Positions 3,468-20,151 of a stretch of 64,000 nt of DNA are shown here, piece after piece. How positions within the stretch are numbered: the first letter of the stretch is position 1; the number at the start of each line of letters is the position of its first letter. The DNA is from Theristus sp. LFF4_11. Taxonomy: Eukaryota > Nematoda > Chromadorea > Monhysterida > Xyalidae. Position numbers and translations under genes: made by a program. The notes below the pieces were generated by a model that was not told where the DNA came from, made no database searches, and saw only the letters and a program-made list of their open reading frames with translations. The DNA lies in contig JASANC010005529.1 in assembly GCA_030248135.1 (NCBI GenBank), positions 21,579 to 85,578 on the forward strand, in the 5' to 3' direction.

Positions 3468-5628
3468 ATGAGATTAACGAAAATTTGTCGTGGTTTCAAA
3501 GGAAGTGGACTGTGAGTTTCTGTATCTGTGTCGCTTTTTTAAATTTAAACCGTTGCTGTCAAAGCAGAATGTGCATGTCGTCTGTATGTTGCAATTTGCA
3601 TACATGTTGGTTCTTCCATGAAAAAAAGTTTGTTTTTTGTCGACCACAATGAGCAGACAAGTTCCATTGCTTCAGACGACGTCCGATGGAGTTGCACGGA
3701 TTTGAGGTGCAAACGCCGCAGACGAAACTGCGCGGCGTCGAAGTGATGAGAAATAATCGTCTGAATAAAGTCGGTTGGAGTCGGAGAACTCAATTTTTTT
3801 GTGACATTTCTGTGCGAACAATGATTTTTTATCAAAGTAACCATAGTTTTTTTTCACTTTCATTCATTCAGTTGCCTTATGTGCTTCATGACGAGCATTT
3901 CTTAAGTTTGAGCTTCACTACTTGTAGTAGTTTGTGTGTGATACTACTAGTAATTTTCAGCTTGTTTTGTGCGATGGCGCACAGTTTTGTGAGAGTTGAA
4001 AAAACTTCATGAAAAACAATCGCATCGTTTCGTCGTTCTATTTCGCCAGGGTCTGTCATTCTCCCTGAAAGAGCGCCAGTACCTTGGCATCCACGGTCTG
4101 TTGCCTCCAGCGTTCTTCAGTCAGAATCACCAGGCGCATCGAGTGCTCGAGAATCTGCGACGGCAGCCCGATGATCTGGCGCGCTACATTCAATTGAACA
4201 TGCTTCAGGTTTTTTTGAACGTTTCTTGTCGAAAATAGCCAGCTGGGTTGGGCTGCCAGCATAGGGTTAGGGGCTTTGAAAAAAAAAATTTTTTTTTTAT
4301 TTTTTTTTTCGTTTTTTTTTAAAAAAAAAAATTTGGATTTTTTTTTCAAACTTAAAAAAAAAATTTGAAAAATTTTTCTTCTACTTTGCTCTGAAAATTC
4401 GATTTATGGCATAATTTTTTGAAAGTTCAAACCAAATTTTCTTCCCAACTTCTTTGTGTGCTTAGGTACATGTCATTATTTGGTCATTTTGACCGACGTA
4501 CTCCATGTTTTTCGATTTGGATGACTTCTAGAGTCAATTTTTAGCGTTGAAATGACTTAACTGAATTGAAATATCGTTTCAGAAATCGTTTTCTTGCAAC
4601 TTAGAACATGTTTTTTCAGTCGGTAGGCCATGAGATGAACATGATATCTTGTTGATTGGCGTACGTTATAGGTCTACAATGGAGTTGTGCGATATATTGT
4701 TAAACAATTGGAGCGGGGATGTTGGTTAATACCACATCACACGACCGTTTTTCAGATACCCGATAACATGGCCACATGTTAAAACTTGCGTGCTGAGCTA
4801 AACTAACGTGTTAAACTTGCGTCTGTCCGTTGCCCGCAACGTGATCGCGAAATATGGTAGTGTTTTGATAGATGATTTGAAGAGGGGGGGGGGGGGGGTT
4901 TTTTGCCAGCACAATTGAATGAATCCAGCAGCCGCACTGCATGGATCGCTCAATCAGCGCACCTAGCCGTCACAAATTTCCCCTAAAAGATTGTGTGCGG
5001 AACTTTTCGCCGTTTCATTGGCGAAACGTTGCGTTAACTTCAAATTTCAAAATTCAAAACTTTCGAATTTCAAAACAATCGTTTCACCAGGATCGCAACG
5101 AGAAACTATTTTACCGCGTGCTAGTCGACAACGTCGAGGAGATGATGCCAGTCGTCTACACGCCCACCGTCGGGTTGGCCTGTCAGAAATTCGGATTCAT
5201 TTATCGGCGGCCAAAGTGAGGAAATTCAGGAGAGAATTGCATTTTTTGGCATTTTTTTTTGAAAAACGTGCTGGAAACGGAATAGTATCAGACATTGCCG
5301 GAGTACTGTTTCACACAGTTTTGAATGCGGGAGGTTTGCGAACAAAACACAGTGGACAGTACAATCTGCTTAGCTTCCATGCAAAGTAACCTGAACAAAT
5401 GAAACAAAATGTCATTGATTAAAATAGCCGAAAACTCAGCGGTAACCAACAGTAGCAGCAGCAGCTCTACATTTTTCTGCAGAGGCCTGTACATCTCCGT
5501 GTACGACAACACAGTGGAACGCATTTACGACATCCTCTGTAATTGGCCGGAGAATGATGTGAGAGCAATCGTAGTGACGGACGGACAACGGATATTGGGA
5601 CTGGGCGATTTGGGTAGCTATGGGATGG
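3468..5628 (+). CDS. ME: Malic enzyme N-terminal cassette 1 (alternative exons 1-5)
   Basis: Five exons: 3468-3511, 3676-3769, 4050-4208, 5091-5215, 5483-5628 (568 nt, all open, GT..AG borders). They encode a start ([14 protein letters not shown]), a variable linker ending RNNRLNK, the family block [18 protein letters not shown], and the catalytic-tyrosine motif [10 protein letters not shown]. The last exon carries [20 protein letters not shown] and [13 protein letters not shown]. This is the whole N-terminal half of a malic enzyme, which forms dimer contacts, supplies the catalytic Tyr and in human ME2 carries the fumarate site. No C-terminal exons follow before cassette 2. The last exon ends in phase 1, matching common exon 6 at 13924. 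Unlike the other cassettes it has Tyr, not Asn, in the GDLGxxGMG loop. Either an alternative 5' module of the locus or a partial duplicate. The domain call is secure; expression is unknown. Confidence 0.8.
4268..4375. repeat. A/T homopolymer-rich tract in cassette 1 intron 3
   Basis: Alternating long A and T runs immediately after exon 3 of cassette 1, with no coding content. A second low-complexity stretch in the same intron is a run of about 17 G near 4884-4900, a likely site of length error in assemblies. Confidence 0.6.
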
Positions 5629-6067
5629 GTGCGTTTCGGGAGTTTTAGGGTTCTTATATCATTGTTTTTTGTTGTTAATAGCATCATCTTAGGCGCTCAC
5701 GACGGTCAAAAAAGGCACTGGAGTCCGTATTTTTACTCTCAGACCACGTTGATTGAAAAGACGTGTAAAAACTATAAAATGTGCGGTAAACAGACAAGTC
5801 TTCTGTCTTTTTCTGATTGGGTTACACCTTTTTGTCGGTTGAAAGAGAGTTGTTAGCAAGATTGAGGAAAAAATGCTGTGAGTGATCAGAAAAAATCGGT
5901 GATCGGCAATCCTGAACGACAACAAAGTTTCCAGCTTCACTGGTATCAGCACCGCACCCGATTCAAAGACACTTGACGAATTAGCTGATTGTATACAGTG
6001 GGTTCAGTGAGTTGTGCAACAAAGCAATAGACTGTTGACAACAAGACTCAGACAATAGCAAAAGTGA

Positions 6068-19900: not shown

Positions 19901-20151
19901 GCGTATTGAGTGCCAGAACCAGAATAAAAGACAGCACTTTTTTGTAAAAAAAGATCTCGACAACGAAACAAAAAAACCGCTCCGTGTTGCAGAAGGGCGA
20001 GGCGGCGTTCCACCCGGAGCCGAAAGACCACGAGGCGTTCATCCGGGCGCAAGTGTACAGCACGCACTACGAGGACTACGATCCGCAGTTCTACGACTGG
20101 CCGGAAGAGCACACAACCAAGAAATTCGATCCGGACACGAAAGCGGCCTAA
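10946..20151 (+). CDS. ME: Malic enzyme, complete gene model (cassette 3 plus common exons 6-14)
   Basis: Oxidatively decarboxylates malate to pyruvate with NAD(P)H formation. Fourteen exons: 10946-10992, 11439-11532, 11883-12041, 12387-12511, 12997-13142, 13924-14125, 14558-14666, 14768-14866, 16244-16357, 16651-16759, 18214-18356, 18930-19103, 19527-19646, 19993-20151. Together they make 1800 nt, 599 residues, close to the usual size. Visible motifs in order: [16 protein letters not shown] (catalytic Tyr), [11 protein letters not shown] (catalytic Lys), QFEDF and [15 protein letters not shown] (metal ligands), FFGAGEASCGIAQ (dinucleotide-binding loop), [54 protein letters not shown]. Asp-Ser-Lys-Gly after the second strand resembles NADP-type enzymes (tentative). 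Intron 3 appears to use a GC donor (12042-12043). Exons 6-14 are the only C-terminal exons in the window and are probably shared with cassettes 1 and 2. Confidence 0.95.
14997..16117. mobile_element. hAT-like element with ACCGAA-type subterminal arrays, in malic enzyme intron 8
   Basis: Termini TAGTGATGTGTTCGG and, inverted, TAGTGTTGTGTACCG. The flanks GTTCCGAA (14989-14996) and GTTCCGTA (16118-16125) form an 8-bp target duplication with one change. Both ends carry arrays of AACCGAAACCGAAACCG, diverged. No transposase frame in 1121 bp; G-rich runs occur centrally. Confidence 0.75.
16849..18051. mobile_element. hAT-like element with TATACCG subterminal arrays, in malic enzyme intron 10
   Basis: Perfect terminal TAGGGGTGG / CCACCCCTA and a perfect 8-bp target duplication ACTGTAAC (16841-16848, 18052-18059). 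Both ends have arrays of a unit like TTTTTTATACCG, inverted relative to each other. 1203 bp, no recognisable transposase frame, so non-autonomous. Confidence 0.85.
18714..18878 (+). mobile_element. tRNA-derived SINE, fullest copy
   Basis: The tRNA-like head has an A-box-like TGGTAGGTAGCGCGTTAGAC and a B-box-like GGGGATCGAGCCCC, spaced as in a tRNA gene. A unique body follows (CTTAATGACAAAGAAAACTC, then GGGTTAGCCCTGGC). The body is shared with 7505-7656 (+) and 63790-63951 (-), so this is a dispersed family rather than a tRNA gene. Located in malic enzyme intron 11, just upstream of exon 12. Confidence 0.8.
19776..19856. repeat. MITE family B fragment in malic enzyme intron 13
   Basis: Contains GAAATGCTTGATGCGGC and the family phrase TCTCAGGGACACGGGT, shared with 38697-38893 and 60660-60850. 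Ends are missing. Confidence 0.45.

What the first reader, a model, noticed from the sequence alone, without database searches (positions are those of the whole stretch)
3468..20151. Malic enzyme locus with three interchangeable N-terminal exon cassettes and one shared C-terminal half
Seen: three successive five-exon sets (3468-5628, 7066-9120, 10946-13142), each with its own start-codon exon, intact frames, intact splice sites and the same phases, encode the complete N-terminal half of malic enzyme. Only one set of C-terminal exons exists (13924-20151). The cassettes are evenly spaced (about 3.6-3.9 kb) and differ mostly by silent changes in the conserved exon 3, as expected under selection. 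Inference: alternative promoters plus splicing to common exon 6 would give isoforms of 598, 599 and 599 residues with different N-termini. This half holds dimer contacts, the catalytic Tyr and, in human ME2, the fumarate site, so isoforms could differ in regulation or location. I know of no described malic enzyme gene with this protocadherin-like layout.
Basis: partly seen in the sequence, partly recalled or inferred. Interest (0 to 1): 0.9.

Follow-up and report, generated by a model that had tools for sequence, protein, structure and literature searches.

The report
Malic enzyme gene, three front halves
A nematode gene for the metabolic enzyme malic enzyme carries three complete, still-selected versions of its front half ahead of a single back half, which likely lets one gene make three differently regulated forms of the enzyme; no RNA data were at hand to prove it.

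Summary
Three tandem five-exon sets (3468-5628, 7066-9120, 10946-13142) each encode the whole N-terminal half of malic enzyme. One nine-exon set (13924-20151) encodes the only C-terminal half here. Each set joins in frame to exon 6: 598, 599 and 599 residues. Whole-assembly searches find one other malic enzyme, an ordinary gene, and no orphan C-half. The cassettes are old (introns no longer alignable), yet omega is about 0.12, and neutrality is rejected on each cassette's own branch. They keep 52, 51 and 51 of 53 near-invariant residues. Exon 4 of cassettes 1 and 2 differs at 3/125 bases, against 82/305 in exons 3+5: likely recent conversion. Dead copies or alleles are poor explanations. Most likely the cassettes are alternative 5' modules spliced to a shared NADP-type half, predicted to differ in fumarate regulation (cassette 2 has Lys for Arg67). 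Unlike UGT1 or protocadherin arrays, each unit has five exons, so splicing must skip eight or four intact acceptors; exon 5's exit phase fits only exons 6 and 11. Transcripts and promoters are unproven. The organism is a nematode by trees, species unknown. None of the papers my searches listed describes such a gene.

The parts
3468..3511 (+). cassette 1 exon 1 (start codon, basic N-terminus)
3676..3769 (+). cassette 1 exon 2
4050..4208 (+). cassette 1 exon 3 (equivalents of ME2 positions 57-73)
5091..5215 (+). cassette 1 exon 4 (Arg91 equivalent, catalytic Tyr); near-identical to cassette 2 exon 4
5483..5628 (+). cassette 1 exon 5 with exit donor at 5629 (phase 1)
7066..7112 (+). cassette 2 exon 1 (start codon); acceptor-like site 40 nt upstream (exon from 7026)
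7368..7461 (+). cassette 2 exon 2
7698..7856 (+). cassette 2 exon 3 (Lys at the ME2 Arg67 position)
8566..8690 (+). cassette 2 exon 4
8975..9120 (+). cassette 2 exon 5 with exit donor at 9121 (phase 1)
10946..10992 (+). cassette 3 exon 1 (start codon)
11439..11532 (+). cassette 3 exon 2
11883..12041 (+). cassette 3 exon 3 (GC donor)
12387..12511 (+). cassette 3 exon 4
12997..13142 (+). cassette 3 exon 5, adjacent to the shared exons
13924..14125 (+). shared exon 6 (entry phase 1)
14558..14666 (+). shared exon 7
14768..14866 (+). shared exon 8
16244..16357 (+). shared exon 9 (Ser/Lys of the NADP signature)
16651..16759 (+). shared exon 10
18214..18356 (+). shared exon 11 (entry phase 1)
18930..19103 (+). 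shared exon 12
19527..19646 (+). shared exon 13
19993..20151 (+). shared exon 14 with stop codon

Best explanation
Three tandem five-exon sets, each encoding a whole N-terminal half of malic enzyme, stand before one nine-exon set for the C-terminal half, and each set is predicted to be transcribed from its own start and spliced from its exon 5 to the shared exon 6, giving three likely mitochondrial, NADP-type isoforms. Shown: the anatomy, the single C-half, the phases, purifying selection on each cassette, and the near-identity of exon 4 between cassettes 1 and 2. Inferred: separate transcription starts, the long skips (5628 to 13924 and 9120 to 13924), gene conversion as the cause of the exon-4 likeness, mitochondrial import, and different allosteric behaviour. 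The cassette covers the half with the fumarate-site residues; the shared exons carry the residues that set cofactor choice. The gene would thus swap the regulatory half of a metabolic enzyme while keeping its nucleotide-binding half. Splices from exon 5 into exons 2-5 of a later cassette shift the frame, because exon 5 leaves in phase 1 and only exons 6 and 11 enter in phase 1; such RNAs would be non-productive.
For: In-frame joins of each set to exon 6, 598/599/599 aa. In the whole assembly the N-half family matches at 10 places and the C-half family at 9, all in this locus and one paralog. tblastn (E up to 0.1) finds no extra C-terminal exon in the window or in 19,978 bases upstream of it. 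Codon ML on exons 2-5, 174 codons: omega 0.115 overall against 1 (2dlnL 148); each branch below 1 (p 1.5e-5, 2.3e-3, 2.6e-5), and still so without exon 4 (132 codons; p 1.1e-4, 2.1e-3, 0.031). In DNA the pieces that align between cassettes are exons 2-5 (exon 2 not between sets 1 and 2) with short splice flanks, including 8 nt past exon 5, plus two short spacer/intron pieces and one inverted repeat. 52, 51 and 51 of 53 near-invariant N-half columns among 112 database proteins are kept. Catalytic Tyr and substrate Arg are kept in all three, which an N-half acting alone should not need. GC3 is 0.61, 0.72 and 0.75 in the sets, against 0.38-0.45 GC in their introns. The three sets are one clade (98/91) inside nematodes.
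Against: No RNA was available; the best of the 120 listed database proteins is 66% identical, so no conspecific protein was seen. No promoter motif stands out: the one TATAAAA upstream of cassette 2 (6681) is one of 14 in 64 kb. The acceptor-like sites before the cassette 2 and 3 ATGs could mean trans-splicing or 5'UTR introns. Cassette 1's exon-5 donor must pass eight intact downstream acceptors, cassette 2's four. Among 112 database proteins no pair shows the shared-C, different-N signature, although 90% clustering could hide it. All three sets have lost the near-invariant Glu of TDGER (109/112), and set 2 and set 3 each depart at one further near-invariant site. GC3 is lowest in cassette 1. 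The stop-codon simulation had no indels.
Confidence: 0.68

Rival explanations
1. One long pre-mRNA from a single promoter upstream of cassette 1 covers all sets, and the cassette is chosen by RNA processing: spliced-leader trans-splicing or 5'UTR splicing at the acceptors before cassettes 2 and 3, or alternative splicing that may also mix exons between cassettes.
For: Acceptor-like site 40 nt before the cassette 2 ATG (14 of 15 pyrimidines), and sites 19 nt (11 of 15) and 338 nt (14 of 15) before the cassette 3 ATG. The organism is a nematode by trees. Every border has the same phase in all three sets, so mixed exon orders stay in frame.
Against: No spliced leader was found: the C. elegans SL1 sequence has no exact match, and the Rfam SL1 search had no working control, so it shows nothing. 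Cassette 1's only candidate acceptor is weaker and 144 nt off (11 of 15), as expected of a first unit.
Confidence: 0.17
2. Cassettes 1 and 2 make stand-alone N-terminal proteins of about 190-200 residues, ending in intron or UTR sequence, perhaps as regulators of the full enzyme.
For: Read-through past exon 5 meets a stop after 6 codons in set 1 and 4 in set 2; a join from 5628 to 7026 would meet a stop after 15 codons (read by eye).
Against: The exit donors and 8 nt of their intronic flanks still align between sets. Active-site residues useful only with the C-half are kept. AATAAA is absent between 5629 and 7065, and the only one between 9121 and 10945 is at 10838; this is weak, since none follows the real stop within 1.3 kb either.
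Confidence: 0.06
3. Cassettes 1 and 2 are dead or dying leftovers of a partial tandem duplication; only cassette 3 is used.
For: Cassette 3 alone is close to exon 6 (781 nt intron). GC3 falls from set 3 to set 1.
Against: Omega is well below 1 on each branch. There are no frameshifts or stops after an estimated 0.5-1.6 neutral substitutions per site per branch, where neutral simulation leaves 0 or 1 of 600 copies stop-free (t 0.5, 0.7, 1.0).
Confidence: 0.05
4. Assembly artefact: full-length tandem genes whose near-identical C-halves were collapsed or dropped.
For: Draft assembly of 3744 contigs. No read depth can be examined here.
Against: The sets differ by about 25% in coding DNA and their introns hardly align, so they are not alleles. 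The locus lies inside an 85.6-kb contig, and the window holds no N. A collapse should not join cassettes through 1.4-1.8 kb of distinct spacer. No stray C-half was found elsewhere.
Confidence: 0.04

Closest known systems
UGT1 (UGT1A) and clustered protocadherin multiple-variable-first-exon arrays (PMC1885805 abstract; PMC3325998 search listing)
   Same: Tandem variable 5' units before one constant set of 3' exons. In UGT1 too the variable part is the N-terminal half of an enzyme.
   Different: Units here have five exons with four acceptors each, so the donor cannot just take the next acceptor. Only three units. A central-metabolism enzyme in a nematode, whereas PMC1885805's abstract calls the Ugt1, Gcnt2 and Ugt2a organisation vertebrate-specific. 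Own promoters not shown.
Nematode mitochondrial malic enzyme (Ascaris suum, 1LLQ/1O0S)
   Same: Best solved-structure match (1.1e-236). Same residues at ME2 positions 57, 67 (sets 1 and 3), 73, 91 and 102.
   Different: Position 59 differs (Met in Ascaris; Phe, Phe, Leu here). Ascaris is NAD-type (Ala/Ile/Asp/His, PMC3183043 passages); the shared half here reads Glu/Ser/Lys/Lys, the NADP-type set. Three N-halves, one C-half.
Tandem full-length malic enzyme duplicates
   Same: Local duplication of malic enzyme sequence. Seven long database proteins (P0001-P0006, P0015) carry parts of two malic enzymes and look like fused or run-on predictions.
   Different: Those units carry C-halves; none of the 8 listed proteins over 720 aa has the order N-N-C.
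Mutually exclusive exon clusters such as Dscam (PMC1397879 search listing)
   Same: Tandem related exons, one used per transcript (predicted here).
   Different: Here whole five-exon blocks that begin with a start-codon exon, not single internal exons.

Membership tests
Malic enzyme (PF00390 + PF03949) | N-terminal malic domain and NAD-binding Malic_M domain | tested here: met
   exon-wise Pfam matches; PDB malic enzymes over query residues 21-589
Malic enzyme (PF00390 + PF03949) | Catalytic Tyr (Ascaris Tyr126) and substrate Arg (Ascaris Arg181) kept in every cassette | tested here: met
   alignment; roles recalled, positions from the alignment
NADP-type malic enzyme | Glu314/Ser346/Lys347/Lys362 set (PMC3183043 passages) | tested here: met
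   Glu, Ser, Lys, Lys in the columns where Ascaris has Ala, Ile, Asp, His (read by eye from the printed alignment)
Multiple-variable-first-exon cluster (UGT1/protocadherin) | Tandem variable 5' units before one constant 3' exon set | tested here: met
Multiple-variable-first-exon cluster (UGT1/protocadherin) | Variable unit is a single first exon with no splice acceptor (recalled) | tested here: not met
   five exons, four AG acceptors per unit
Multiple-variable-first-exon cluster (UGT1/protocadherin) | A promoter before each unit | tested here: inconclusive
   no motif above background
Multiple-variable-first-exon cluster (UGT1/protocadherin) | Transcripts join each unit to the constant exons | not testable with these tools
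   no RNA data for this species
Mutually exclusive exon cluster (Dscam type) | Alternative units are internal exons lacking start codons (recalled) | tested here: not met
   each unit has its own start-codon exon
Plain tandem gene duplication | Each copy carries both halves of the gene | tested here: not met

The most novel reading that the evidence does not exclude
A worm builds one metabolic enzyme from an interchangeable regulatory half and a constant cofactor-binding half. Three promoter-plus-cassette units, and possibly in-frame mosaics of their exons (21 order-preserving combinations fit the phases, counted by hand), feed a single NADP-type catalytic end. Mixed tetramers with different fumarate sensitivity form in the mitochondrion, and a reading-frame lock at exon 5 silences wrong splices.
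Probability: 0.3. Interest if true: 0.85.

Novelty: new variant of a known kind. Interest (0 to 1): 0.72.

Why it matters
If confirmed, it would be a central-metabolism enzyme whose whole allosteric half is chosen from a tandem array while its cofactor half stays constant, a layout that the papers I saw describe for vertebrate detoxification enzymes and adhesion proteins. It poses a clean splicing question: how a donor ignores eight intact acceptors. It also gives a natural set of half-swaps with which to test what the N-half of malic enzyme controls. The selection result makes it worth testing as soon as RNA from the worm is at hand.

Tried and rejected
Species identity: the 18S rRNA search (RF01960) did not complete, and the COX1 family search found nothing, so 'nematode' rests on trees alone. 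Spliced leader: no exact C. elegans SL1, and the Rfam SL1 search had no ringing control, so nothing can be said. Promoters and poly(A) signals: TATAAAA and AATAAA counts are not informative. NG86 dN/dS failed for two of three pairs with a math error, taken as saturation (the third pair gave dN 0.19, dS 0.86), so a codon ML model was written instead. Precedent in other species: the 8 of 120 listed proteins over 720 aa were examined for two N-halves before one C-half; none has that order. All pairs among the other 112 were examined for equal C and different N; the largest difference besides the window's own is 0.095 with C-halves 71% identical. RNA pairing: the inverted pair 4301-4441/10755-10900 looked like a possible looping element, but its first arm matches an abundant dispersed repeat (40 full copies scored of 931 candidates), so I gave it up. 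Papers: five searches were answered, listing 20 of 94, 20 of 165, 6 of 6, 12 of 33 and 12 of 53 papers. By title and start of abstract, none listed describes a malic enzyme with alternative N-halves; unlisted ones were not seen, and the library holds open-licence papers only. I saw the abstract of PMC1885805 and passages of PMC4049574 and PMC3183043; other papers cited were seen in search listings only.
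Full report
What is there. The window is part of an 85.6-kb contig (C3518) of a 159-Mb, 3744-contig assembly. The malic enzyme gene was rebuilt exon by exon. Three sets of five exons, each opening with a start-codon exon, encode residues 1-190 (1-189 in set 1). 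Nine shared exons encode the rest. Each set joined to the shared exons gives one open reading frame of 598, 599 and 599 residues. All 12 internal acceptors of the sets are AG; 14 of 15 donors are GT and one is GC (set 3, exon 3). The phases are the same in all three sets (2, 0, 0, 2, then 1 into exon 6).

Nothing is missing elsewhere, as far as the assembly goes. Whole-assembly searches find the N-terminal family at 10 places and the NAD-binding family at 9, all on this contig and one other, C2805. C2805 holds an ordinary malic enzyme with one N-half and one C-half. Nine of its exons were joined into 390 residues without a stop; its last exons were seen as tblastn matches only. It lacks the intron at the exon 5/6 border. 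tblastn at E up to 0.1 finds no C-terminal exon between the cassettes or in the 19,978 bases fetched upstream of the window.

The cassettes are old and selected. In DNA, the pieces that align between them are exons 2-5 with short splice flanks (exon 2 not between sets 1 and 2), two short spacer/intron pieces and one inverted repeat. A three-branch codon model on exons 2-5 gives omega 0.115 (neutral rejected, 2dlnL 148). Letting each branch have its own omega gives 0.09, 0.16 and 0.12, each below 1 (p 1.5e-5, 2.3e-3, 2.6e-5). Leaving out exon 4, the values are 0.06, 0.12 and 0.17 (p 1.1e-4, 2.1e-3, 0.031). Of 53 N-half columns conserved in at least 97% of 112 database proteins, the sets keep 52, 51 and 51. 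In neutral simulations without indels, 7 of 600 copies stayed stop-free at 0.3 substitutions per site, none at 0.5, 1 at 0.7 and none at 1.0. The simulation is crude (one composition).

Exon 4. In sets 1 and 2 it differs at 3 of 125 bases, against 82 of 305 in exons 3 and 5 (binomial P about 2e-13), while they differ from set 3 at 25 and 22 bases. The similar stretch ends 12 bases before and 2 bases after the exon. Recent gene conversion is the likely cause. The introns had presumably diverged already, so that only the exon offered homology (inference).

Whose genome. Trees of the N-half (34 of the 120 listed proteins plus 4 local rows) and of the C-half (the same 34 plus 2) put the gene among nematodes (nematode forks 94/93 and 100/99). 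In the N-half tree the three cassettes are one clade (98/91), near Trichuris and Trichinella with modest support (91/74); the C-half tree does not repeat that place, and pairs the gene with an unnamed database protein instead (97/76). The best listed database protein is 66% identical (Plectus sambesii), so no conspecific protein was seen and no transcript can be checked.

What the halves do. The cassettes carry the equivalents of the human ME2 fumarate-site residues. PMC4049574 (passages) states that fumarate pairs with Arg67 and Arg91 at the dimer interface and that mutating them abolishes activation. Mapped through the Ascaris enzyme (catalytic Tyr126 taken as ME2 Tyr112, recalled), Arg91 is kept in all three, and position 67 is Arg, Lys, Arg in sets 1, 2, 3. 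Across 112 proteins position 67 is Arg in 91 and Lys in none. The shared half has Glu, Ser, Lys, Lys at cofactor positions 314, 346, 347 and 362, the NADP-type set of PMC3183043 (passages; alignment). All three N-termini are basic with no acidic residue before position 20, while the paralog has one at position 6. Mitochondrial import of all three is therefore predicted, not shown. The Glu before the substrate Arg (109 of 112 proteins) is Gln, Ser, Ser in the three sets; its effect is unknown.

How it likely works. Each set would be transcribed from its own start and spliced to exon 6. The exit donors of sets 1 and 2 are kept although no C-terminal exon of their own follows, and they would have to cross 8295 and 4803 bases. 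Unlike UGT1 or protocadherin first exons, these sets have internal acceptors, so exon 5 of set 1 must ignore eight intact acceptors and that of set 2 four. Reading frame gives a back-stop: exon 5 leaves in phase 1, and only exons 6 and 11 enter in phase 1, so joins to cassette exons 2-5 shift the frame. Acceptor-like sites 40 bases before the set 2 ATG, 19 and 338 bases before the set 3 ATG, and a weaker one 144 bases before the set 1 ATG leave open 5'UTR introns or spliced-leader trans-splicing from one long transcript. No promoter motif exceeded background.

Known or new. Searches for malic enzyme with alternative first exons or promoters, for variable-first-exon clusters, and for gene conversion in such clusters listed no malic enzyme of this kind, judged by titles and starts of abstracts. 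The library holds open-licence papers only. PMC1885805 (abstract) describes UGT1, GCNT2 and UGT2A organisation as vertebrate-specific. I therefore call this a new variant of the variable-5'-unit layout: it is predicted to work like it, but fails one defining feature (single first exon without acceptor).

Limits. Everything about transcripts, promoters, import and regulation is inference. The assembly's reads could not be inspected.

Noticed in passing
L017 (contig C2805), about 2660-8360, minus strand: Second, ordinary malic enzyme: acidic residue already at position 6, Glu in place of the Arg91 that is invariant in 112 of 112 database proteins, no intron at the exon 5/6 border but one inside the TDGERILG stretch.
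   Followed up: partly
window 7505-7655 and 18737-18877: Dispersed repeat, tRNA-like to the eye (not tested), in introns of cassette 2 and of the shared part; 2027 first-look candidates genome-wide, 40 scored.
   Followed up: partly
window 4330-4441 (inverted partner 10755-10900): Very uniform dispersed repeat in cassette 1 intron 3: 40 full-length copies at 100% identity scored among 931 candidates.
   Followed up: partly
window 9750-9984: Perfect 116-base direct duplication in the spacer between cassettes 2 and 3.
   Followed up: no
window 22809-28274: Complex tandem array with nested units (114, 182, 279-300 bases) just downstream of the gene.
   Followed up: no
window 62003-62241: ACGTG-rich short tandem repeat inside a long minus-strand ORF (61485-62261) that matches Ion_trans.
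   Followed up: no
window 15017-16096: Arrays rich in GGTAACCGAACCGAAACCG inside the intron after shared exon 8.
   Followed up: no
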